Below, piece after piece: positions 34,139 through 46,100 of a stretch of 64,000 nt of DNA. This DNA is from Comamonadaceae bacterium (GTDB lineage: Bacteria > Pseudomonadota > Gammaproteobacteria > Burkholderiales > Burkholderiaceae_C). Location of the stretch: the NCBI GenBank assembly GCA_027488255.1, contig JAIYBZ010000029.1:62001-126000 (forward strand). The letters run 5' to 3'. The position numbers were made by a program, and so were the translations under genes. How positions within the stretch are numbered: the stretch's first letter is position 1; each line of letters opens with the position of its first letter. The notes beneath the pieces were generated by a model. That model saw only the letters and a list, made by a program, of their open reading frames with translations. It had not been told where the DNA came from and ran no database searches.

Positions 34139-35077
34139 TTGAACGCCAAGGCGACTCCTCACCTCGAATTTGCCCCGCCTAAACCGCCGGGCGCGGGGCG
34201 AGCTTGGGCGGTCGCGGGCATCGCGCATGCCATTCTCTTCGTCGCTTTGGGTTTGGCCACGGCGTGGAAAACCCAACCTCAAACCGCACAAGCTGAAGCC
34301 GAACTCTGGTCGGCCATGCCTCAAGCGGCGGCGCCCAAACTGCAAGAGCCCCCACCCGAGCCCGAGCCCGAGCCCGAGCCCGAACCCACGCCAACGCCCA
34401 AACCGGTAAAGCCCACACCGCCGCCCCCACCGGCCCCCGACCCGGCGCAAGAACGCTTGGATGCCCAAATTGCGCTTGAAAAGAAAAAGCAAGAAGAGAA
34501 GAAGAAAAATGACAAGCTGAAGGCGGACAAAGAAAAAGCCGAGAAAGCAAAAGCCGAGAAAGCAAAAGCTGAAAAAGAAAAAGCCAACAAAGACAAACTG
34601 GCCAAAGAAAAAGCGGCGAAAGACGCGAAAGAAAAAGAAGCCAAAGAGCGCGACAAAAAGAAAGCCGCTGAAAAAGCCGCGGCGGAAAGCAAAGCCGACG
34701 CGGCCCGCGCTGAAGCCATGCGCCAAGAAAACCTGAAACGCATGCAAGGCATGGCAGGCGCCACAGGCGGTGAAAACGCCACGGGCTCGGCCCAAAAATC
34801 ATCTGGGCCATCGGCCAGTTATGCGGGCCGCTTGGTGGGCCGCATCAAGCCCAACATCACCTACCCGGGCGATGTGGTGGGCAACCCGCGCGCCGAAGTC
34901 GAAGTCAAGGTGGGCATGGACGGCACCATCCAGAGTCGCCGAATTGTGCAATCGAGTGGCAACAAAGCCTGGGACGATGCGGTGCTGCGCGCCATTGACA
35001 AGACGGAAGTCTTTCCGAAAGACCCCGATGGGCGTATTCCACCGGTGATCGTGCTGGGGTTCAGACCGCTGGACTGA
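34139..35077 (+). CDS. tolA: Tol-Pal protein TolA
   Basis: TolA links the TolQR motor to the outer membrane. From TTG 34139 (AGGA 8 bases upstream) it has 312 residues. These are an N-terminal membrane helix at about 23-42, an EP-repeat proline-rich stretch at 65-95, and a long K/E/A-rich helix at about 105-215. A TonB/TolA C-terminal domain ends in VIVLGFRPLD. The low-complexity middle explains several spurious long frames here. tolB and pal, which normally follow, are absent. Confidence 0.94.
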   Translation: MNAKATPHLEFAPPKPPGAGRAWAVAGIAHAILFVALGLATAWKTQPQTAQAEAELWSAMPQAAAPKLQEPPPEPEPEPEPEPTPTPKPVKPTPPPPPAPDPAQERLDAQIALEKKKQEEKKKNDKLKADKEKAEKAKAEKAKAEKEKANKDKLAKEKAAKDAKEKEAKERDKKKAAEKAAAESKADAARAEAMRQENLKRMQGMAGATGGENATGSAQKSSGPSASYAGRLVGRIKPNITYPGDVVGNPRAEVEVKVGMDGTIQSRRIVQSSGNKAWDDAVLRAIDKTEVFPKDPDGRIPPVIVLGFRPLD

Positions 35078-35111
35078 GCGGCACAAAGAGACTTTGCTGA
35101 ATATTTGAATT

Positions 35112-35117
35112 TATAAT
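35112..35117 (+). promoter_or_regulatory. Candidate promoter of island genes A and B
   Basis: A consensus TATAAT stands 25 bases before the ATG of gene A, in an AT-rich stretch right after tolA. No good -35 is seen at 16-18 bases; AGACTT is the best match. The hexamer suggests that genes A and B are not just the tail of the tol operon. Confidence 0.45.
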
Positions 35118-35142
35118 CACATCAACATTAAAAGTGACAGGT

Positions 35143-35883
35143 ATGACAAACATTCTCAAATCAAGCCACACTGCCACATCCTGGGTTAAAGGCCTTCTTT
35201 TTGGCCTGACACTGCTGACGCAAGTGTCTGCCCAAGCCCAAGTGTTGAACTCCGCTTCGCTCAGCAAAAGCCCGGTGCCGATCAACGAAGATTTTGTGAT
35301 CATTGTTCAACTCACACCGAACAACAACCCCGTCTTGTGCGGTCTGAGCATCGAATTCGGCGACGGTCGCGCGCAAAGCATTCGCGTCGGCTCAGAGGGC
35401 TATCAGAGTCTTCCCTTGCGATTGACTCACCGCTACACAGTCACCGGTGAATACACTGTTCGCCTGTCAGGTCGATACATGTCGCGCGGCTTGAGATCTG
35501 CCGTCCCTTGCGAAGGTGCTCCGATTGCATTGACTGTGAAAGTCATTGACCCTGCCGAGGGTGAAGCCGCCAGAAGACTCCAAGAGCAAGCACAGCGCGA
35601 ACAAAATGAACGCATCAGGATGCGTCAGGATGAAGAACGGCTTGCGCGTGAGCGTCAAGCCATCGAAGCTCAGCGCAAAGCCCTGGAAGAACGGGAACAA
35701 CAAGCCAAAGAACGAGAGCTTGCTGAACGCGAACGTGCCCTGCGCGAACGCGAAGCCGCCCTGAACCGCAAAGCCCAGGAAGTTGCACCAGCCAAACCCG
35801 CTGCTCCACCGGCACCAACACCGGCGGCACCCGCTGCCGCCAAGCCGGCCCCCGCACCCAAACCCGCCGCCACTGGCTTTTGA
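35143..35883 (+). CDS. Island gene A: secreted PKD-like protein with coiled-coil tail
   Basis: I do not recognise this gene. The 246-residue precursor has a signal peptide with the hydrophobic stretch VKGLLFGLTLLTQ, cut after SAQA (near residue 32). Residues 40-135 look like a PKD/Ig-type beta domain: IEFGDG, then LTHRYTVTGEYTVRLSG. Two cysteines (in PVLCGL and VPCEGA) could form a disulfide in the periplasm. Residues 140-210 are a dense R/E/Q coiled coil, followed by a P/A-rich tail. The start is ATG 35143; a GTG at 35134 is possible. Gene B starts 25 bases downstream. Confidence 0.75.
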   Translation: MTNILKSSHTATSWVKGLLFGLTLLTQVSAQAQVLNSASLSKSPVPINEDFVIIVQLTPNNNPVLCGLSIEFGDGRAQSIRVGSEGYQSLPLRLTHRYTVTGEYTVRLSGRYMSRGLRSAVPCEGAPIALTVKVIDPAEGEAARRLQEQAQREQNERIRMRQDEERLARERQAIEAQRKALEEREQQAKERELAERERALREREAALNRKAQEVAPAKPAAPPAPTPAAPAAAKPAPAPKPAATGF

Positions 35884-35908
35884 TTCAGCCGACTGAAGGA
35901 CATTGCCC

Positions 35909-36913
35909 ATGAAGTGCAACCACTGTGGTGCATCGTTGCGCCCAACAGCCAAACTCTGCATCCAGTGCGGCAATGCAGTCGGGGCCACCCCCGCGCCTGC
36001 AGCCTCCCCCTCACCCGCTGCACCTGCTGCAAGCGAATTGCCCGCATCCTCTAGGGCATCCTCTTCGGCTTCCGAAGCCAGCCTGACCACGCCAGCTGTC
36101 ACGCAAACGCCAGATCATGTCGAAGCGCCTACACCAGAGCAGGCCCCGACACAACAAGCAGTTGCCACAGCGGAAAATGCGGCGCCCAAAGCGACGCAAG
36201 CCACGGCCAAATACGAAGTCGCCCCAGAATTTGCGTCACCCCCAGTGAACGCAATGCCAACCGCTGCGAGCGTCAGCCAGTCCGCGCAGGGACCCCATGC
36301 ATCCAAGAGCGGCATCAAAATAGCGGCGGGGGCCATCGGCTTGCTGACCGCGGGCGTTGTGGCTTATCTTGCAATGGCAGGGGGCAACAAATCTCAAGTG
36401 CCTGATTCGGCGCCAACACCCATTCAGGCGGCTCCTGCTGCACCTGCTGCCCCGGCCGCACCTGCCCCCGCTGCCGCTGTGTCCCGCACAGTAGACAAGG
36501 CTTTCATCAACGAAATGATGCAATGGGTTGCCCAAGACCAATGGAGCGCATTAGCAGATCAGGTGCGCAGCGCGCAGGTTCAAGCCAATGCAGACACCGC
36601 CACTTTGCGTGAGCAAGCCCAAGCCGCTTTGAGCGGTGGCAATGCTGCACAAGCCCAGAAGCTGACTTTGGAGTTGCTGCTGACAGATCCTCAATCGGGT
36701 TTTGCTTGGTTGTTAGCCTCGCAGGTGTTTGCCGTACAAGACATCACCCAACCGGCCCAGTCGGCGCTGAAACTGGCTTACTACTTTGCCAAAGACCGGA
36801 CACAAGCCGCCGGCAGTTTGGTTGAAATTGCACGCACTGCCGAGCCCAAATTCAAGGCCGTCGTTAACCAAACGTCACCCCAGTTTCAGTCGATCCCGGC
36901 TTACAAGCCCTGA
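35909..36913 (+). CDS. Island gene B: zinc-ribbon membrane protein with helical repeat tail
   Basis: No named family is recognised. The 334-residue protein starts with a zinc ribbon, CNHCGASL then CIQCGNAVG (four cysteines within residues 3-22). A P/A/S/T-rich linker runs to about 130, followed by one membrane segment (IAAGAIGLLTAGVVAYLAM, about 138-156). Another P/A linker leads to a C-terminal helical domain of about 140 residues that resembles TPR-type repeats. The ribbon should be cytoplasmic and the tail periplasmic. AAGGA lies 9 bases before ATG 35909. The layout recalls Bacillus YdjG-like zinc-ribbon partners of PspA, an inference from architecture only. Confidence 0.75.
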   Translation: MKCNHCGASLRPTAKLCIQCGNAVGATPAPAASPSPAAPAASELPASSRASSSASEASLTTPAVTQTPDHVEAPTPEQAPTQQAVATAENAAPKATQATAKYEVAPEFASPPVNAMPTAASVSQSAQGPHASKSGIKIAAGAIGLLTAGVVAYLAMAGGNKSQVPDSAPTPIQAAPAAPAAPAAPAPAAAVSRTVDKAFINEMMQWVAQDQWSALADQVRSAQVQANADTATLREQAQAALSGGNAAQAQKLTLELLLTDPQSGFAWLLASQVFAVQDITQPAQSALKLAYYFAKDRTQAAGSLVEIARTAEPKFKAVVNQTSPQFQSIPAYKP

Positions 36914-36934
36914 TCGGCCACATCAAAAAGCCAA

Positions 36935-36961
36935 ACCAGGCATGGGCAATCGCTCATGCCT
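36935..36961. terminator. Bidirectional terminator between the two island operons
   Basis: AGGCATGGGC at 36938-36947 pairs with GCTCATGCCT at 36952-36961 (10 bp with one G-T pair, loop AATC). It is followed by TTTG on the plus strand and by GGTTTGGCTTTTT on the minus strand. It lies between the convergent genes B and C. Confidence 0.7.
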
Positions 36962-36975
36962 TTGCAAGCATCAAA

Positions 36976-38166
36976 TCAAGACGCCACAGGGGGTGATCGG
37001 CGCTTGAACTCTTGAACGATTTGTGGCTCCAAGTCGGCAGAAAAATACATGTCTTCGGGGTCCTGTGTCCCCCGGATTTGTACCTCTCCCAAGCTCTGGC
37101 CCTTCGAGATCGCCATCAAGGCCACTTGTCGGGCCGAATAAGGACCGGCAGGGCCCCGATCGGTTTGCACAATAAATGCAGACTGACCAGAGATCACAGC
37201 ACCGGCGGAAGCATGGCGCACCGAACCGCTCGGGATGGAACCCGACTGCAGCGTGGGCCCACGGCGCGTCAAGTCACCAAAAGAACCCAACACGGGTACA
37301 CCATGCGACTCCATGCCTTTGCCCAAGCCCTCAAGCGCTGCCCGCTGACCTTGCACCAAATTGAATTCGGTATAGCCATTTTGTGAAGCGATGCGGTTTT
37401 GTGACTCTTGGATACCGAAGTCACGCAGCAACTGCAAACTGGTGTCATCGAGTTGCATGGTCAAATCGTAGATTCGACCCATCGTCAGACCCAAGGGCGT
37501 AAATTCATCGTCCGTCAGACGGACGATTTCTTGACTGATCGACTCAACATCGACATTCGAGACAATCTGCATGATCGGTTGGCGCATCGATCGCATGCCC
37601 ACCGTTTTGCGCAACTGGTTGAAAATGCGGCCGTCCAACACCTCTTGCGCAGCCGCTCCCGACCCCGCGGACAAGCCTGTCAATGACGTCATCAAGGTCA
37701 CGGGGTCCTTGACACGAACGGTGTATGACAAGCGCGCATTGATTCCCACCACATTGGCGGAATTCAGATCCTTGTACTGACCCAACTCGGCCACACCACT
37801 GTCCAGTCGGCATTCGTAGGTGGCCACAAAAAAGAGCTCGCACAAGAAGTGGTTCGCTCCGGTGAATTGGTCCACCAGAAAATGGCCCAAAAATGGCAAG
37901 TTCGCCGTGTCCAGCAATTCCGTGCCGGGGTTCAAGCGGGCGATGAACTTGCCCTCGCGGAAAAACAAAGCGCATTCGTCGCTGCGCACGGTGATTTTTG
38001 CGCCTCTCGGGATGCTCTTGTCAGGATGCATGTAAACCAAATCGCCCATCGCGCTTTCGGGGCGAGCAATGTACAAAGACTTCGTTTCATCCCGGATGAA
38101 TGACAAAGTGACCGTGTCTTTGACGGCCTCCACAGACTTTCCAATCAAATTACCAAGCAAGCTCAT
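36976..38166 (-). CDS. Island gene C: SPFH-like (YdjI/virion-core type) protein with GYF_2-like tail
   Basis: The 396-residue protein resembles the SPFH-related family annotated as virion core protein/YdjI. The relevant part is about residues 15-240, with SESAMGDLVYMHP-like and GKFIARLNPGTELLDT segments, LGQYKDLNSANVVGINARLSYTVRV, then helices with DVESISQEIVRLTDDEFTPLGL. A linker leads to a C-terminal stretch GPAGPYSARQVALMAISKG that resembles a GYF_2 module. No membrane helix is seen; SPFH proteins form rings on membranes. The ATG at 38166 and a GTG at 38172 are both possible; the latter overlaps gene D. It is the last gene of the five-gene minus operon. Confidence 0.75.
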   Translation of the reverse strand: MSLLGNLIGKSVEAVKDTVTLSFIRDETKSLYIARPESAMGDLVYMHPDKSIPRGAKITVRSDECALFFREGKFIARLNPGTELLDTANLPFLGHFLVDQFTGANHFLCELFFVATYECRLDSGVAELGQYKDLNSANVVGINARLSYTVRVKDPVTLMTSLTGLSAGSGAAAQEVLDGRIFNQLRKTVGMRSMRQPIMQIVSNVDVESISQEIVRLTDDEFTPLGLTMGRIYDLTMQLDDTSLQLLRDFGIQESQNRIASQNGYTEFNLVQGQRAALEGLGKGMESHGVPVLGSFGDLTRRGPTLQSGSIPSGSVRHASAGAVISGQSAFIVQTDRGPAGPYSARQVALMAISKGQSLGEVQIRGTQDPEDMYFSADLEPQIVQEFKRRSPPVAS

Positions 38167-38168
38167 CG

Positions 38169-38633
38169 TCACTGCCCTTCCTGTGTCCGGTTTTCACCGG
38201 GCGTTTCAAACGTTCTGCGTTCCGAAGCTTTGGGCAAAGGACTGACATGTCGCGAAGTCATGAGAGGTATGGCCAAGTTCAACAACATCCACACCGACAA
38301 ATACCCCACCAACCAAGTGGGCACCTCACTCAAATGTTGCCAGCGCTGGCTGCCCAACATCATGGGGGAAATTGTGAAATAGAAAAGCCCCCAGACCAAG
38401 GCCTGGGCAAAAGCATAAATATTCAACCCCAAAGCCAAACCACCGTAAGTGAACCGATCGCCGCCAAACATGGCAAACAAAACGCGGCCCCAAATCAACC
38501 AATAAAACTTGAGAACAATAATGCCGAAGAAAAACAAATTGGCAGATGCCTTCAAGTTAGGCCCGTTGAACAACAGCCAAATGACCGTAGGCAAAGCCAA
38601 GCCCAAGACAAAAATGCGAAAAACGGAAGTCAT
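38169..38633 (-). CDS. Island gene D: four-helix membrane protein
   Basis: No family is recognised. The 154-residue protein is very hydrophobic, with four likely membrane segments: RIFVLGLALPTVIWLLF, LFFFGIIVLKFYWLIWG, LNIYAFAQALVWGLFYFTI and WLVGYLSVWMLLNLAIPL. A charged cytoplasmic tail follows. ATG 38633 overlaps the gene E stop as ATGA, so translation is coupled; an ATG 9 codons upstream is less likely. It is probably the membrane anchor of the set. Confidence 0.75.
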   Translation of the reverse strand: MTSVFRIFVLGLALPTVIWLLFNGPNLKASANLFFFGIIVLKFYWLIWGRVLFAMFGGDRFTYGGLALGLNIYAFAQALVWGLFYFTISPMMLGSQRWQHLSEVPTWLVGYLSVWMLLNLAIPLMTSRHVSPLPKASERRTFETPGENRTQEGQ

Positions 38634-39613
38634 GCTGGGCACACCGATTCCAAAATCCATTGCTCGCTGCTGGTCAATTGGCCCCGCAGACGCTCCAGAT
38701 ACTGTTGGCGTCGTTGGGGGTGGTAGTGCTCGTACTCAAAGCCCACTTTCAGCATCGCCGTCATCGCATCAATCGACGATGAAATCACCGTGACATCCCC
38801 GATACGTCCGCCGATAGAAAGCACCCACTTGTCCAACGACTGAGCATGCAATTCATCCAATGCTGCATTCGGTGTGACTGGCGACTCCAGCCAATCGGTG
38901 TGCGGTGAAAGCAATGAGTAACCGGGGTAGTCGGCCTGCCCCTGATCCACCAGATTCATCAGTTGATCCAGCTTTCGGACCGCCGGGTAATAACGCACAT
39001 CGCAGGCGTGAATGGTGCCGTTGGCGGCCTCATAAGGTGCCATCACGGGCTGAGTCAAGCTCTCGCCCAAGGCGTGAATCATCATGCAAGCGCCTTCAAA
39101 GGACACATCTCGACTGGCGTAACCGCCCAGCGAGGACATGCGCACAGACAAACGCTCTTCCACAATGCAAGTGCCCAACACCACACAGTTTTCAAGGGTG
39201 CAATTGACGGCTCGGACACTGCCAAAAATCACCGCATTTTTCAGCGCAATGTTTTGGTTCGCAACCAGATCGCCTTTGATAATCAAAGAGGCTTTTTGCA
39301 CCTGACGCATAGGCTGAGTGTCAGGTTGCAAATGGCAATTCAAAGACCCGTTGATCGTCAAGCCCGAGTGAAGCTGCACCCGACCCTGCCGTGGATCAAT
39401 GCGCAAATCCCCCCTTGCCACGACGGGCCCTTCCACCAGCACATCGCCACGCAACTCCAGCGCTCGACCATACAAAGCACCCTCAATGCGAGCGGCTTTT
39501 TCACTGCCATCCACCAAGACCGGAAAAACCGTGTCTTTTTCGTTGGTCGGAAACACACTGCCCGCAATGTGGCCCGTGACCACCACGTTGCTGCCTTCTT
39601 GCTTAATGGGCAT
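38630..39613 (-). CDS. Island gene E: bactofilin-like beta-helix protein
   Basis: The 327-residue protein has in its first 170 residues the short G-V-I-x repeats of a polymer-forming bactofilin/beta-helix: GDVLVEGPVVARGDLRI, GLTINGSLN, KASLIIKGDLVANQNIALK, AVIFGSVRAVNCTLEN, CVVLGTCIVEERL. The C-terminal half is less repetitive and of unknown fold. Bactofilins polymerise without nucleotide and organise membrane-bound complexes; this role is inferred. ATG 39613 has GGAGG 7 bases upstream and overlaps gene F by 11 bases. Similarity to a carbonic-anhydrase or hexapeptide beta-helix is an alternative. Confidence 0.72.
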   Translation of the reverse strand: MPIKQEGSNVVVTGHIAGSVFPTNEKDTVFPVLVDGSEKAARIEGALYGRALELRGDVLVEGPVVARGDLRIDPRQGRVQLHSGLTINGSLNCHLQPDTQPMRQVQKASLIIKGDLVANQNIALKNAVIFGSVRAVNCTLENCVVLGTCIVEERLSVRMSSLGGYASRDVSFEGACMMIHALGESLTQPVMAPYEAANGTIHACDVRYYPAVRKLDQLMNLVDQGQADYPGYSLLSPHTDWLESPVTPNAALDELHAQSLDKWVLSIGGRIGDVTVISSSIDAMTAMLKVGFEYEHYHPQRRQQYLERLRGQLTSSEQWILESVCPA

Positions 39614-40688
39614 GACGCGCCTCCACAATCTTCAATTGACCTGAACCGATGAAATCTTCAAACATGGTGGCTGCATCCTGCGATATCAGGCCCTTGTTGC
39701 GCAACATCTGCGCCGCCTTGGCCATCGCCATGATTTCGCTGCCGTCGGCATCACGAGCCGAGCCCGCGCTGACACCTTGCTTTGCCGAAACCAAAGCCTG
39801 TTCGTTGTTCAAACAGGCCATTTCCTCGGTCAAACTCTGCAGCCTCAACGGATCAGCACCACAACTTTGCGCCGACTGGCCCGCCAGCAATTTGCTGTGC
39901 AGGGTGGATTGAGTCAACACCCCTTCAACCACCATTCGGTCAGCGGGGCGCGTTGCCAGTTGAGCTGCAAATGGAGCCAATTGGGCATCGTTTCTCTGGC
40001 GCGAATACAGCACATCATCAAGCCGGCTGGACTTGAGCATGGACAAGGACTGGTCCAAATTCTGCGAACGAATATCCAGGCGGTGCAAATCCATCTCGAT
40101 AGGCAAGGTGTGCGCCATTTCATAAGGAATTTGTGCGGCGCGTTCAGCAGGCGCAATGTCTTCGTTGCGGATCTGAAAAATGTGGCTGCCAATCGTCTTG
40201 GTTTTGTTGTCAAACTCGTCCAAGATTTTTTGGAAATTCAAATCGTATAAATCCCGATTGATCGCAGCCCCTTCCAAGGCCTTTTCAAAACGGGTCTTGA
40301 TGTCTTGTGAGAATGCACCCAACTTCGTCTTGCTCGACTGGGCTTCGGCTACTTTCTTGCCGATTTCAATCTGCATCGCCGACTCGGTTTGCAAATCCAG
40401 TTTCAGCCGTGTTTCGCTGAAATCGGCTTGCATTTGTTGCTTGGTGCGCTCGAGCATCACCGTGGTGGCCGCGACGCCACCCACCACTGCCACGGTCTGA
40501 CGCTCCAAAGCCTGAACAATCATCTCGCCAATTTCTCTCATTTCTCTCTCCAACCTTGCGACTTCACTGTCGATATAGTCGCGCAAAGAGCGAATCTCTG
40601 ACCGGAATTCGCCGCGCAATTCATTGCGAAGGGAGTTAATCGCGGAGCTTAATTCTCCGTGACTCACGCCCGATGGGGTGTTTGACAT
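39603..40688 (-). CDS. Island gene F: coiled-coil protein with a short hydrophobic segment
   Basis: No family is recognised. The 361-residue protein starts with a heptad-rich coiled coil (about 10-62, R/E/L rich). It has a short hydrophobic stretch at 66-79 (VAVVGGVAATTVML), more coiled coil to about 140, and a mixed helical region to the end. The hydrophobic stretch is too short for a sure membrane span and could be a membrane-dipping segment. AAGGGAA precedes ATG 40688. It lies 16 bases after gene G and overlaps gene E. Confidence 0.75.
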   Translation of the reverse strand: MSNTPSGVSHGELSSAINSLRNELRGEFRSEIRSLRDYIDSEVARLEREMREIGEMIVQALERQTVAVVGGVAATTVMLERTKQQMQADFSETRLKLDLQTESAMQIEIGKKVAEAQSSKTKLGAFSQDIKTRFEKALEGAAINRDLYDLNFQKILDEFDNKTKTIGSHIFQIRNEDIAPAERAAQIPYEMAHTLPIEMDLHRLDIRSQNLDQSLSMLKSSRLDDVLYSRQRNDAQLAPFAAQLATRPADRMVVEGVLTQSTLHSKLLAGQSAQSCGADPLRLQSLTEEMACLNNEQALVSAKQGVSAGSARDADGSEIMAMAKAAQMLRNKGLISQDAATMFEDFIGSGQLKIVEARHAH

Positions 40689-40704
40689 CTTCTGTTCCCT
40701 TCAC

Positions 40705-42789
40705 TCAAGGAGAAATCAAACGCGGACCACCGACTCGGGGTGTAGACAACATGATCCCGGGCTCTCGAACCACCTCGATCGGATCGTGCACCGATCCGCG
40801 CGTGAGGCCTTGCGCTTTAGGCAAACTGGCCAAGGTATTTTCATAGGTATTGGCCGCTGACAATGGCGACTCACCGATCAACAAACGTTGCAAACGCTCA
40901 TCGGTAATTTGTTCCATCACGCGCGGCGAAAGCAGACCCAGCGCACTCATGCCATCTCGGAAACTCAAGATCTCGTCGTACTTGGCATTCAGATCTGACT
41001 CCAACAGATACAAGTTCTCTCGGTTGGTGCGCAAATCGTCGCGGAACTGATTGGCCACGCTGATCAGTTTTTCGCCCTCTTTCTCGCTCATCGAAATCAT
41101 CATTTCGTTGGTTCGGAACAGCTCTGACTTGCGGAAATCGGCTTTCTCCGTCCACAGGTGATCCCAGAGCGGGATCATCAAATCGCAATGCGTCTTGACG
41201 ACACTTCCGTACTTGATGGCATCTGGGGTGCGGTAGACATACGCGGCCAGATCAGTCGACCATTCGTCCAAGTCTGGGTCATAGCGCAACTGAGCTTCTT
41301 GCGAGAAATGGATGATCGGATTGCTCGCACCTGTCAGGATTTTGTTCAGGACCAAACGGAAGACCTTCAGTGCATCGTCTATTTGCATCTGGACATGTCG
41401 AGGCTTGATGGCTTGATCGTGCAAGGTGTTACCGTTCTCATCGACAGCCATCATTTGCAAGAACAAACCGACCGTTTGATGCGCTGCCGATAAATCTTCC
41501 AGCAAATCTGGCTTCTTGCTGATGCGTGCACGCACCACTTCGTCCGATTGCAAGCGGTCCAGCAAGATGTGAATGTCCAGCATGTGTGCACTTTCAATCT
41601 GCACACCAATCAAATCCTGAATGTAATGAGGCGAAACGATGGTGCGCGGACAGAAAAACTTGCGGCTACACCAACTCGCCCGCTCAAGCACTTGCGTCAA
41701 ACCCCCATGAATCTGGTTGACCGACGCAATGCGGGCATTGGCAAAGCGGTTACAAGTGCCCTCAAGGCCCTCATAAACCGTATTGAGGGTGTCCAACAAG
41801 TGCTGGCCGCTGGTGCTTGAAAGCACATTGATCGTCTTTGTGAACGTCTCGATTTCAGGCGCATCACTGCCCGATGCGGCCGCTTCACATGCGGTCGGAG
41901 ACATCACATCCTGAAACTCACCGTTCGACAGACGCTGCTGCAACAAACTCGAGGCAGGAACCAAATGCATGTCGATGCCCACATCGTGCAGCTTGGCCAA
42001 ATTGTTGGTGAAGTCCCCCACCAAAGACTGCAGCTGATTTTCTTCGCCATACAAGCTGTTCATGGGGTCCGATGAATCTGTCACATCTTCAGCAGACAGC
42101 ATGGGGGGAATGTCCAGCAAAGACTGTAACTGCCCCGTAATGGCTGACACCTCATCGGTTAAAGCGGTCATGTCGATGGTGGACAAATGAACCGGCGCAT
42201 GGCTTCCAGAACGGTCATTGAGCACCTGGTGTCCGGCCAAATCCAAGGACTCCAATGGCAAATGCACATCGGCCAGAGTGATCTCGGGAAAGCCACCCAC
42301 GCGCAACTCAAGTTCTTTTTCGATCACCTCTAAGCGCGCCAGGGCCTGACGCAAACCCGCATCGGCTTGTGCCAATGCCTGCTGATTTTGCGTCAATTCA
42401 TCGGCCAAAGCAGCCGCTTGCTTCTTCAGCTGTAGCCATTTCCAAAAGGGATACCCAGCGACAACAGCCAGCACAATCCCTGCGGAAGTCGCAAAGAATA
42501 AGCCGACACCTCCCACCAACAATGCGGCAGCCACAAACAAAAAGGTGGAGACCTTCTTTTGCACGGAAGCAAGATCGGCACTCAGTTGCACCCCGACGGG
42601 TTTCAACTTGAGGATTTCGCCCTCAAGTGCATCGCACTGGGTTTCCAACGTGTCTTTTTCGTGGCGTAAATCTTCACCCTGTCGCCACGAAGCGAGCACA
42701 GGTGCCAGGTGATCAATGATGGCCACCACCCTCGTTTCATGGACATCCAGGACATTGTCTATGGGCCTGGCCAACGATTTCGTGCTCAT
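40705..42789 (-). CDS. Island gene G: large coiled-coil protein with membrane hairpin
   Basis: No family is recognised. The 694-residue protein opens the minus operon. Residues 36-80 are coiled coil, 81-117 form two closely spaced membrane segments (FLFVAAALLVGGVGLFF, then GIVLAVVAGYPFWKWL), and 121-165 are coiled coil again, giving a hairpin with both arms in the cytoplasm. The remaining 500 or so residues look helical and soluble, ending in PRVGGPRLISP. CTGGAG lies 6 bases before ATG 42789. The promoter is in a very AT-rich gap. Confidence 0.78.
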   Translation of the reverse strand: MSTKSLARPIDNVLDVHETRVVAIIDHLAPVLASWRQGEDLRHEKDTLETQCDALEGEILKLKPVGVQLSADLASVQKKVSTFLFVAAALLVGGVGLFFATSAGIVLAVVAGYPFWKWLQLKKQAAALADELTQNQQALAQADAGLRQALARLEVIEKELELRVGGFPEITLADVHLPLESLDLAGHQVLNDRSGSHAPVHLSTIDMTALTDEVSAITGQLQSLLDIPPMLSAEDVTDSSDPMNSLYGEENQLQSLVGDFTNNLAKLHDVGIDMHLVPASSLLQQRLSNGEFQDVMSPTACEAAASGSDAPEIETFTKTINVLSSTSGQHLLDTLNTVYEGLEGTCNRFANARIASVNQIHGGLTQVLERASWCSRKFFCPRTIVSPHYIQDLIGVQIESAHMLDIHILLDRLQSDEVVRARISKKPDLLEDLSAAHQTVGLFLQMMAVDENGNTLHDQAIKPRHVQMQIDDALKVFRLVLNKILTGASNPIIHFSQEAQLRYDPDLDEWSTDLAAYVYRTPDAIKYGSVVKTHCDLMIPLWDHLWTEKADFRKSELFRTNEMMISMSEKEGEKLISVANQFRDDLRTNRENLYLLESDLNAKYDEILSFRDGMSALGLLSPRVMEQITDERLQRLLIGESPLSAANTYENTLASLPKAQGLTRGSVHDPIEVVREPGIMLSTPRVGGPRLISP

Positions 42790-43123
42790 ACCACTCCAGT
42801 CTTAGCGAATGCGTTAAGTTTTCATGTTACTTTAAATTTATATATACAACACCAAAAAATGGTCAAAATTTTAAATTTAGTAATTTAATTAATTAATTTT
42901 AATAAATAGTTAAAATAACTATAAATACAATTAATTTATAAGAAGTGACTTTCGCCCAGTCAACCTGCCGCTGGCATGAAGTGGCTCTAAGCTCGAATGG
43001 ATTTCATGGGTGCAACTGCCATGAAAGAGAACAGAGCAGTCTTGTTTTGACTCAGCAGTCAGCGCTCAGTTACGCACCACGCTACAACTCGAGCGAAGAC
43101 AGCATGTGCAATGCGCAGCAAGA
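42790..43123. other. Gene-free, very AT-rich gap between gene G and dnaE
   Basis: This 334-base stretch has no convincing gene. From about 42823 to 42945 it is almost all A and T, with repeated TTAATTAATT and TTTAAATT, unlike the rest of the window. From 42945 to 43123 it has normal composition and holds one perfect hairpin, TTTCATGG (43002-43009) and CCATGAAA (43019-43026) with a 9-base loop, about 100 bases past the dnaE stop. A 62-codon frame on the plus strand shows no family signal. Confidence 0.7.
42839..42866 (-). promoter_or_regulatory. Promoter of the island minus operon (G-F-E-D-C)
   Basis: On the minus strand TTGACC (42866-42861) and TATATA (42844-42839) are spaced by 16 bases; shifting by 2 gives TATAAA with 18. 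The start would be near 42832, leaving a leader of about 43 bases. Both hexamers are embedded in the AT-rich tract, where silencing by an H-NS/MvaT-type protein could act. Confidence 0.65.
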
Positions 43124-46100
43124 TCAGTCGTAAACGATCCGCGCTTGCCCTTGATCCGCTTGCGCCATCCAACTTGCCAGCGCGGCATCGGTGGGAAAAA
43201 ATCGCGTCGACTCTCCCAGCGCCAGCTCGGCACGCGCGGCCAACTGGTCGTTGCGGCGCTCTAGGACCAAGCGCACCGGCAAGCCGCGCACCAGATCGCC
43301 TTGCTCGGTTTGCTCGCGTTGTGCCGGGAATTCCCGGACCAATCTGGCGATGTCTGGCGCACGCCCATTCACCGCCACGCGCAGGTACTTGCCATAACGG
43401 CAGCGGGCGGTTCCCAAGTCCATGATTTGCTCAATTTTTAGCCGGAAGCCCCCAGAAAAGCGGTCCGCTTGCATCTTCGCGTTCACGATGATCAGCTCAT
43501 CGTCCTTCAGCAAATGCTTGGCGGCGTTGAGCAACGCTTCGTCTGCCGTGGCTTCCATCACACCGGACTTGTCATCGAGCTTGAAAATGGCCACTTTGCC
43601 GCGCTGCCCATTGATGACCCGCAAGTCGCTGACGATACCGGCCAACACCATGGACTCGCGGCTGTCGATCAGGTCGTCGATTTTGCGGCGTGCAAATTGC
43701 CGCACCTCGCGCTCGACCGCATCAAACAAATGGCCTGACAAGAAGAAACCCACCGCCGATTTTTCAAGGAGCAAACGCTCTTTGATGCCCCAAGGCATGA
43801 CCTCCACCAACTCGGGCTCTTGGGTGCTCGAGCCATGCGAGTCGTCGCCCAACATGTCGAACAAACCACCTTGGTTGGCATTGGCCGTGGTGGCATTTGA
43901 AAACTCAAACGCGCGGTCAATGCTGGCCGACAAGGCGGCCCGGTTCATGTGCAGGGAATCAAAAGCACCGGCTTTGATGAGTGCATCCACGGTGCGTTTG
44001 TTGATGCGGGTGCGGTCCACGCGCACCGCAAAATCAAACAAACTGGTGAACGGTCCACCTGCTTCGCGTGCCGCCACAATGGCTTCGATGGCTTGCTGTC
44101 CTGTGCCCTTGATTGCCCCCAAACCGTATCGGATGACTTTGTCGGTGACGGGCTCAAAGCGGTGGGAGCCGCGGTTCACATCGGGCGGATCAAAGGTGAT
44201 GCCAAACTTCAGGGCGTCTTCGTAGAGCACTTTCAACTTGTCGGTGTCGTCCATCTCCACCGTCATGTTGGCGCAGAAAAACTCGGCGGTGTAATGCACC
44301 TTGAGCCAACCGGTGTGGTACGCCAACAAAGAGTACGCCGCGGCGTGTGACTTGTTGAAACCATAGCCCGCAAAGCGCTCCATCAAGTCGAACACCTCGT
44401 CGGCTTTTTCTGCGGAGATGTTGTTCTTGGCGGCGCCCTCGCGGAAGATGGCGCGGTGCTCGGCCATCTCTTCGGCCTTCTTCTTGCCCATGGCCCGGCG
44501 CAACATGTCGGCGCCACCCAAGCTGTAACCGCCCAAAATCTGCGCCGTCTGCATCACCTGCTCTTGGTAAACCATGATGCCGTAGGTTTCACTCAGCATG
44601 TCGGCCACCAAGGGGTGCGGATATTCAATCACCTCGCGCCCGTGTTTGCGCGCGACAAAGCTCGGGATCAAGTCCATGGGCCCGGGTCGGTACAAAGCGT
44701 TCAGCGCAATCAAGTCTTCCAAGCGACTGGGCCGGGCATCGCGCAACATGCCTTGCATGCCACGGCTTTCAAACTGGAAAACGGCTTCGGTTTTGCCTTC
44801 TGAAAACAGCTTGTAGGTCGCCACATCGTCCAGCGGAATGTCTTCAAACGCAAAGTTCTCTTGGCCTTTGTGCCGTTGGATGATGAACTCTCGGGCGATT
44901 TCTAAAATCGTCAGCGTGGCCAGACCCAAAAAGTCAAACTTCACCAAGCCCGCCGACTCCACATCGTCCTTGTCGTATTGACTGACGGCCGATTCACTGC
45001 CGGGTTGTTGGTACAGCGGACAAAAATCAGTCAGCTTGCCCGGCGCAATCAAAACGCCCCCCGCGTGCATGCCGATGTTGCGGGTCATGCCCTCCAATTT
45101 TTGCGCCAACTCGATCAGGGTCTTGACGTCTTCTTCACGCTCAATGCGCTCGGCCAGTATCGGCTCCATGGCGATGGCGTAGTTGTTTTTGTCGCCTTCT
45201 TTCGGGGTCGCTGGCGGGTATTGCAAAGTGACCGACATGCCCGGCTTGTTCGGGATGAGTTTGCTGATGCCGTCGCAAAAGGTGTAGCTCATGTCCAGCA
45301 CACGCCCCACATCGCGAATGGCAGCACGCGCGGCCATGGTGCCAAAGGTGGCGATTTGGCTGACCGCATCGCGGCCATATTTGTCTTTCACGTAATCGAT
45401 CACCCGATCGCGGTTGCTTTGGCAAAAGTCAATGTCAAAGTCGGGCATCGAGACCCGTTCTGGGTTCAAGAAACGCTCAAACAGCAAGTTGTATTGCAAG
45501 GGATCCAAGTCGGTGATCTTGAGGGCATACGCCACCAACGAGCCGGCACCCGATCCCCGGCCAGGACCCACAGGGCAGCCATTGGATTTGGCCCACTGAA
45601 TGAAATCACCCACGATCAAAAAGTAACCGGGGAAGCCCATCTTCAAGATGGTGTTGAGCTCAAACTCAAGCCGCTCCACATAACGCGGCTTCTCTGTCTG
45701 GCGTTTCGCCTCATCCGGGTAAAGATGGCGCAAGCGGGCTTCTAGCCCCTCGAAAGACACATGCCGGAAATACTCTTCCACCGACATCACCACGCCGTTC
45801 ACGGGGGGAATCGGGAAATGGGGCAACTGAGGCTTGCCCAACACCAAAGTCAAGTTGCAGCGTTTGGCAATTTCTAGGGTGTTCGCAATGGCACTGGGCA
45901 CATCGGCAAACAGCGCGCACATTTGCGCCGCCGATTTGAAATATTGCTCACGGGTGAAGCGCCGAACACGGCGCTGATTGGCCAGAATTTCGCCTTCAGA
46001 AATACACACACGTGCCTCGTGTGCTTCGTAATCATCGGCCGTGTGAAATTGCACCGGATGGGTGGCAACCACGGGCAAATGCAAGCGAGCCGCCAGCGCC

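What the first reader, a model, noticed from the sequence alone, without database searches (positions are those of the whole stretch)
35078..42960. Seven-gene membrane/cytoskeleton island in place of tolB-pal
Seven genes of no recognised family sit after tolA in two converging operons. The minus operon encodes a coiled-coil membrane-hairpin protein (G), a coiled-coil protein (F), a bactofilin-like beta-helix protein (E), a four-helix membrane protein (D) and an SPFH/YdjI-like protein (C), with tight spacing and overlaps between F, E and D. The plus pair encodes a secreted PKD-like protein (A) and a zinc-ribbon membrane protein (B). SPFH, zinc-ribbon and small membrane proteins are the known partners of PspA in Bacillus (YdjG, YdjH, YdjI), but no PspA is present and a polymer-forming protein is added. 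This could be an undescribed envelope-stress or membrane-domain system with periplasmic and cytoplasmic arms.
Basis: partly seen in the sequence, partly recalled or inferred. Interest (0 to 1): 0.8.

Follow-up and report, generated by a model that had tools for sequence, protein, structure and literature searches.

The report
Rare SPFH membrane-scaffold gene island
A few freshwater bacteria carry an unstudied seven-gene island that probably builds a scaffold on the inner cell membrane, with arms reaching toward the cell wall, and that has been passed between species; what it protects against is not yet known.

Summary
The seven genes are real. G-F-E-D-C is a tight, overlapping five-gene operon; A-B is a converging pair. 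It did not replace tolB-pal: tolB lies 58 kb away with pal- and cpoB-like genes beside it, and in nine other Limnohabitans genomes with both genes on one contig tolB is 58-578 kb from tolA. In nine non-carriers tolA runs into dnaE with 0.1-1.1 kb between, so the island is an insertion. It is rare: 3 of 90 Limnohabitans genomes. G-F-E-D-C also sits as a block in an unrelated place in another Comamonadaceae genome. Between two carriers the island is nearly identical while dnaE differs, so it was exchanged recently. C is an SPFH protein well above the Pfam cut-off; E resembles bactofilin only weakly; D, F and G match no family above threshold; PspA was not found. Relatives of A and B stand beside a Zorya-like motor and dynamin GTPases in another genome. 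Best reading: a horizontally acquired inner-membrane SPFH scaffold with periplasmic arms, guarding the envelope (stress or phage). Structure prediction was never available (26 tries, machine busy), so E's fold and the mechanism stay inferred.

The parts
35143..35883 (+). A: secreted protein (signal peptide by eye), PKD-like domain with two conserved Cys, charged coiled coil, Pro/Ala tail ending in GF
   Evidence: Pfam PKD only weak (14.2 bits, cut-off 23.5)
35909..36913 (+). B: N-terminal zinc ribbon, Pro/Ala linker, one TM (residues 134-159), C-terminal TPR-like domain
   Evidence: Zn_Ribbon_1 24.8 bits, cut-off 25; four Cys invariant in 4 of 4; in B itself TPR is only E 0.73, TPR inferred from homologues in L086 and L113
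36976..38172 (-). C: SPFH domain protein (Band_7_1), no TM, C-terminal part of unknown type
38169..38633 (-). D: small polytopic membrane protein, about four TM
   Evidence: no family in Pfam, NCBIfam, PADLOC or PHROGs
38630..39613 (-). E: putative beta-helix (bactofilin-like) N-terminal part plus conserved C-terminal part
   Evidence: suggestive only
39603..40688 (-). F: soluble, helical/coiled-coil protein (by eye) without family
40705..42789 (-). G: coiled coil (by eye), hydrophobic stretch read as a hairpin (residues 79-115), long conserved C-terminal part without family
   Evidence: NCBIfam PspM 13.3 bits, E 0.059, cut-off 80, over residues 81-161
42790..43126 (.). AT-rich stretch between G and dnaE; its first 88 bases are 88.6% identical in L073, candidate promoter region of the operon
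   Evidence: pattern scan not clearly above chance

Best explanation
A horizontally acquired inner-membrane scaffold system. C (SPFH) oligomerises on the cytoplasmic face of the inner membrane and is held there by D (four TM) and G (membrane hairpin with cytoplasmic coiled coils), as YdjI needs YdjG and YdjH. E, probably a beta-helix polymer former, and F add a cytoskeletal layer to this patch. B (cytoplasmic zinc ribbon, one TM, periplasmic TPR) and secreted A (PKD domain, coiled coil) form the periplasmic arm that reads the envelope or peptidoglycan. The complex assembles where the inner membrane is damaged or being crossed and stabilises it. Shown: gene set, operon layout, SPFH family of C, hydrophobic segments, conservation, purifying selection, transfer. 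Inferred: all interactions, the fold of E, topology, trigger and effect.
For: C is Band_7_1 without its own TM; in B. subtilis YdjI is a soluble SPFH protein whose membrane foci need two membrane partners from its operon (PMC8581546, passages). Overlapping stops and starts. G-F-E-D-C stays together in another Comamonadaceae genome at 39-65% identity. dN/dS 0.03-0.095 for C-G. B has strong hits only in the three G carriers among 90 genus genomes. Exchange: L031/L032 synonymous difference 0.008-0.047 for A-G against 0.294 for dnaE. G's hydrophobic/coiled region has a far sub-threshold match to the phage-shock protein PspM.
Against: No structure could be predicted. E's beta-helix is only suggestive. 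No PspA found, so the best-studied partner is missing. C is 21-23% identical to three common Comamonadaceae SPFH proteins aligned with it. The L033 contig ends 38 bases after C, so A-B linkage there cannot be judged. No regulator in the island ties it to stress.
Confidence: 0.42

Rival explanations
1. An undescribed anti-phage defence system acting at the inner membrane: A-B sense the entering phage or an envelope disturbance and the C-G scaffold blocks entry or damages the membrane.
For: Patchy island, 3 of 90 genus genomes, recent exchange between species, variable slot between tolA and dnaE. In G038 a relative of A follows a ZorB-like protein fused to a B-type TPR domain and a ZorA-like gene, with three dynamin-family GTPases nearby, two of them with LeoA matches. 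The pspA-ydjGHI operon responds to phage SPP1 and a CBASS cyclase is conjugated to PspA (PMC11153139, passages).
Against: No PADLOC hit better than E 0.034 for any of the seven proteins. No recognisable effector domain. The G038 link concerns A and B only, and a relative of its ZorA/ZorB on a Paraburkholderia plasmid has no TPR, A or dynamin match in 24.6 kb, so that grouping is not fixed.
Confidence: 0.27
2. A cell-shape or surface-organising system: a bactofilin-like polymer on an SPFH platform places wall synthesis or a surface structure, perhaps against protist grazing.
For: Bactofilin-like hint in E; loss of YdjG or YdjH disturbs wall synthesis under alkali stress in B. subtilis (PMC8581546, passages).
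Against: No recognised peptidoglycan enzyme or surface-structure gene in the island; E may not be a bactofilin.
Confidence: 0.15
3. Two independent modules, A-B and C-G, that share a slot and were inserted together. (Overlaps with the other readings; the four odds do not sum to one.)
For: A- and B-type genes occur together in G981, where no G match was found, and in G038, with no match to C-G in L113 and none to D-G in the rest of that contig. dN/dS differs (0.16-0.19 against 0.03-0.095); A and B do not share the lower G+C of C-G.
Against: Together in the three Limnohabitans carriers.
Confidence: 0.3

Closest known systems
PspA-YdjGHI membrane-stress system of Bacillus subtilis
   Same: Soluble SPFH protein (C / YdjI) with membrane partners in one operon; a zinc-ribbon TM protein nearby (B / YdjG).
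   Different: No PspA found in the genome; no CxxC pair in C; E, F, G have no counterpart; B's outer domain looks TPR-like, that of YdjG is described as NTF2-like (PMC11237479, passages).
Bactofilins (PF04519)
   Same: E gives a weak match in its N-terminal half.
   Different: Below cut-off; E is 327 aa with a large extra C-terminal part; its L033 relative gives no Pfam hit.
Zorya (ZorA/ZorB) and Leo dynamin defence genes
   Same: A-type protein and B-type TPR domain occur beside ZorA/ZorB-like and LeoA-like genes in G038.
   Different: No motor or GTPase gene in the window's island; no D-G match in the G038 contig.
Common Comamonadaceae SPFH protein with a C-terminal helical tail (SHOCT-like, name recalled)
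   Same: Same SPFH family, 21-31% identity; 90 of 150 family genomes match, the window's own included.
   Different: Other C-terminus in the three aligned; no D-G match in the short stretches L002-L030.

Membership tests
SPFH / Band_7_1 (PF13421) | Match above the curated cut-off over the SPFH domain | tested here: met
   53.2 bits, cut-off 24, residues 51-235; L033 relative 50.3 bits
PspA-YdjGHI system | PspA present | tested here: not met
   PF04012: 0 of 6 Limnohabitans genomes including the window's own (97% complete); 9 of 14 controls positive
PspA-YdjGHI system | SPFH protein with C-terminal zinc finger (as reported for YdjI) | tested here: not met
   Residues 315-389 give no zinc-ribbon match; no CxxC pair in the sequence printed
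PspA-YdjGHI system | Zinc-ribbon plus TM partner | tested here: met
   B: Zn_Ribbon_1 24.8 bits, just under cut-off 25, four Cys invariant in 4 of 4; one TM; but on the other strand, not in C's operon
Bactofilin | PF04519 above cut-off / beta-helix fold | tested here: inconclusive
   17.8 of 27.9 bits, none for the L033 relative; hhalign to 6 bactofilin-like stretches P 0.0033, probability 9.7%, 31 columns, against 0.72 and 0.57 for G and SPFH controls; no periodicity; fold prediction never ran
Known anti-phage defence system | Match to PADLOC-DB models | tested here: not met
   Best E-value 0.034, in the coiled coil of A; F to LeoBC E 0.07
Tol-Pal replacement | tolB and pal missing or displaced by the island | tested here: not met
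   tolB and pal-like gene 58 kb from tolA in the window's genome; tolB apart from tolA in non-carriers too

The most novel reading that the evidence does not exclude
A new kind of mobile envelope-guarding machine: an SPFH ring and a beta-helix polymer joined on the inner membrane by two unknown membrane proteins, coupled to interchangeable periplasmic TPR/PKD arms that other genomes plug into Zorya-like motors and dynamin GTPases; that is, a shared periplasmic sensor cassette used by several membrane-based defence systems.
Probability: 0.2. Interest if true: 0.85.

Novelty: new variant of a known kind. Interest (0 to 1): 0.52.

Why it matters
What SPFH proteins do in bacteria is still largely open (own knowledge). 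A compact five-gene unit that moves between species and keeps an SPFH protein with the same four partners, three of them (D, F, G) in no known family, names the parts to reconstitute. If the A-B arms are a sensor cassette shared with Zorya- and dynamin-type islands, it links envelope-stress proteins and phage defence in a testable way.

Tried and rejected
Replacement of tolB-pal: rejected. Second hit of the G profile in the phylum sample, G613: an HlyD-type coiled coil by eye, dropped. B hit in G194: residues 143-194, a Pro/Ala-rich stretch, dropped as chance; its region L087 was fetched but not examined by eye. Plasmid or phage carriage: no match for G, E, F or A in plasmids or for G in phages; IMG/VR scans with G and E found no relative. 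C in plasmids: distant SPFH proteins in 8 records; two contexts opened, no D-G match in them by sequence. F to LeoBC (E 0.07): taken as coiled-coil similarity. G to PspM (E 0.059): far below cut-off, kept only as a hint. A as a marker of the system: its domain profile matches 25 of 379 family genomes; 11 of 20 fetched neighbourhoods hold a transketolase gene (motif test), so the fold says little alone. GYF-like reading of C's C-terminus, considered by eye: no Pfam support. Beta-helix periodicity of E: 75 of 300 shuffles as good. Promoter and terminator scans: not clearly above shuffles.
Full report
What is there. The window lies in an unnamed 2.6 Mb genome. Its genus is Limnohabitans: the search tool places it in one genus with G182, whose 373,353-base contig has the length of the L. 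parvus II-B4 contig of L032. Between tolA and dnaE lie A and B on the plus strand and C, D, E, F, G on the minus strand. The junctions suggest translational coupling: F and E overlap by 11 bases, E and D by ATGA, D and C by GTGA (if C starts at its GTG), and G and F are 16 bases apart. A starts 56-65 bases after tolA and B 25 bases after A, so A-B could be read with tolQRA; no promoter or terminator stands out.

Families. C is a Band_7_1 SPFH protein (53.2 bits, cut-off 24). B has a borderline zinc ribbon, E a sub-threshold bactofilin match, A a very weak PKD match; D, F and G have no match above a cut-off in Pfam, NCBIfam, PADLOC or PHROGs. The best sub-threshold hint for G is NCBIfam PspM, a phage-shock protein (13.3 bits, cut-off 80, E 0.059); for the L033 relative of F it is DUF6074 (17.5 bits, cut-off 27.2). 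Hydropathy gives D about four TM, G one long hydrophobic stretch (79-115), B one TM (134-159) and none for C, E or F. Sequence searches of the PDB with E, C, G and F gave nothing below E 0.01 (best 0.016 for F, 0.018 for G); A, B and D were not searched there.

Distribution. A scan of the GTDB representative genomes with C found three loci (26 pattern matches): two Limnohabitans (L031, a MAG; L032, L. parvus II-B4) at 91% and one Comamonadaceae MAG of unnamed genus (L033) at 63%. This scan uses patterns from one protein and finds close relatives only. All seven genes are at the tolA-dnaE place in L031 and L032. In L033 G-F-E-D-C are in the same order and sense beside unrelated genes; that contig ends 38 bases after C, so A-B cannot be judged. 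Profile searches, each count including the window's own genome: E, 3 of 60 genus genomes; G, 3 of 90 genus genomes; G, 1 of 399 order genomes; G, 2 of 398 phylum genomes, the second a coiled-coil false hit; E, 2 of 399 family genomes. Many genus genomes are incomplete (2 of 56 among those at least 90% complete with at most 5% contamination), so rarity is approximate.

Insertion, not replacement. In nine non-carrier Limnohabitans genomes whose tolA region was fetched, tolA is followed by dnaE in convergent orientation with no island gene, 9 of 9. The gaps are 116-1074 bases and vary in content: four hold a gene that reads by eye as a quinone oxidoreductase, two a small secreted protein, three little. 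L. parvus keeps a broken remnant of the oxidoreductase gene between G and dnaE, while no remnant was seen in the window; so in L. parvus the island entered beside that gene, which then decayed. tolB was found in 13 of 13 genomes searched, 12 of them distinct (the one reached through L031 has the same coordinates as G185), carriers and non-carriers alike. tolA and tolB share a contig in 10 of the 12: about 58 kb apart in six (G000, G182, G184, G180, G200, G173) and about 90, 101, 417 and 578 kb in G166, G162, G087 and G155; in G150 and G185 they are on different contigs. In the window's genome pal- and cpoB-like genes follow tolB (by eye).

Transfer and selection. Between L031 and L032 the island is 97-100% identical in 500-base steps, whereas the steps within dnaE are 86-96%. 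The tolA side is intermediate (85-99%) and the first step before dnaE is 99%, so the exchanged tract may not be just the island. Synonymous difference is 0.008-0.047 in A-G and 0.294 in dnaE, the one flanking gene computed. C-G have G+C 0.49-0.55 per gene against 0.572 for the window; A (0.576) and B (0.600) do not. Window against L032: dN/dS C 0.030, D 0.095, E 0.035, F 0.095, G 0.062, A 0.158, B 0.185, with dnaE 0.034; synonymous sites are near saturation, so these are rough.

The A-B pair. B gave strong hits in the same three of 90 genomes and weak ones in G981 and G194, the latter dropped. In G981, on a 3.9 kb contig, a zinc-ribbon/TM/TPR protein (TPR_19 34.2 bits) is followed by an A-like secreted protein, a zinc-ribbon DUF805 protein (DUF805 78.6 bits), a small protein and a zinc-ribbon protein with His-Gly and Cys motifs like a caspase-like peptidase (last reading by eye). 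G981 has no G match. The A-domain profile matches 25 of 379 family genomes in 16 of 141 genera. I fetched neighbourhoods of 20 of the 23 outside Limnohabitans: 11 of 20 hold a transketolase gene, most often with the A relative between it and a GAPDH gene (by eye), a core location. In one of 20, G038, the A relative follows a 410-residue protein whose first half is ZorB/OmpA-like (PADLOC 65.7 bits; OmpA 38.2 bits) and whose second half matches the TPR part of B, after a ZorA-like gene (28.7 bits; its end runs into unread bases), with three dynamin-family GTPases (Dynamin_N 67-81 bits; two with LeoA matches of 35.8 and 19 bits), a TerB/Lcl_C protein (Lcl_C 60.8 bits, TerB below cut-off) and, by eye, a patatin-like and a WYL-type gene nearby. 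A ZorA/ZorB relative on a Paraburkholderia plasmid has no TPR, A or dynamin match in 24.6 kb. So a TPR/PKD periplasmic arm recurs with different membrane machines in two genomes besides the carriers; that is not a statistical association.

PspA and YdjI. PspA was not found in 6 Limnohabitans genomes, the window's among them. YdjI is reported as soluble, with a zinc finger near its C-terminus, and needs YdjG and YdjH for its membrane foci (PMC8581546, passages). The PSP survey describes band-7 proteins as recurring PspA partners that may aid assembly of membrane complexes (PMC11237479, passages). pspA-ydjGHI responds to phage SPP1, and a CBASS cyclase is conjugated to PspA (PMC11153139, passages). 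C has no such zinc finger and PspA was not found, so the system is not filed in that family, but it could work like it.

E as bactofilin. Pfam 17.8 bits (cut-off 27.9) for the window protein, none for the L033 relative. Profile comparison with six bactofilin-like stretches (four annotated as such): P 0.0033, probability 9.7%, 31 columns; G and the SPFH set as controls gave 0.72 and 0.57. No periodicity above shuffles.

Literature. Searches for bactofilin with SPFH and PspA, Band 7 with bactofilin and operon, polymer-forming cytoskeletal with SPFH, and bactofilin with anti-phage found no paper in the held open-access library. For Zorya, dynamin and LeoA, 23 papers held two of the terms; none of the 20 listed held all three. 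For SPFH, flotillin and anti-phage defence, 227 papers held at least two terms; I saw ten in the listing, one of which (PMC13239085, on phages of oak-decline bacteria) holds all three and was not opened. The L. parvus search listed 13 papers, none opened. So no description of this island was seen, within those searches only.

Verdict. A real, selected, mobile multi-gene membrane system with an SPFH core and three unclassified partners; the tolB-pal story is wrong; function is inferred. Without structures or experiments I hold the envelope-guarding scaffold at 0.42, with the defence reading and the two-module reading as serious rivals (they are not mutually exclusive).

Noticed in passing
L113 and L133 (G038 contig C66): Island with ZorA-like, ZorB-OmpA fused to a TPR domain, an A-like PKD protein, three dynamin-family GTPases, a TerB/Lcl_C protein, and by eye a patatin-like and a WYL-type gene: a possible composite Zorya/Leo-type membrane defence island.
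   Followed up: partly
L086 1-3930 (G981 contig C93): Row of zinc-ribbon proteins: ZnR-TM-TPR, A-like, ZnR-DUF805, small protein, and a ZnR protein with caspase-like His-Gly and Cys motifs (by eye).
   Followed up: partly
L064-L073, gap between tolA and dnaE: Small variable slot between convergent tolA and dnaE: oxidoreductase-like gene in four genomes, a small secreted protein gene in two, short inverted-repeat sequence in two (L070, L071), 164 bases of little in L069, the island in the carriers.
   Followed up: partly
L114-L116, L118-L120, L123, L124, L126, L127, L130: A short secreted A-like (PKD-type) protein of unknown role near transketolase, usually with the GAPDH gene on its other side.
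   Followed up: no
window 35077-35143: A-B follow tolQRA in the same sense with a gap of 56-65 bases, so they could be co-transcribed with the Tol motor genes.
   Followed up: no
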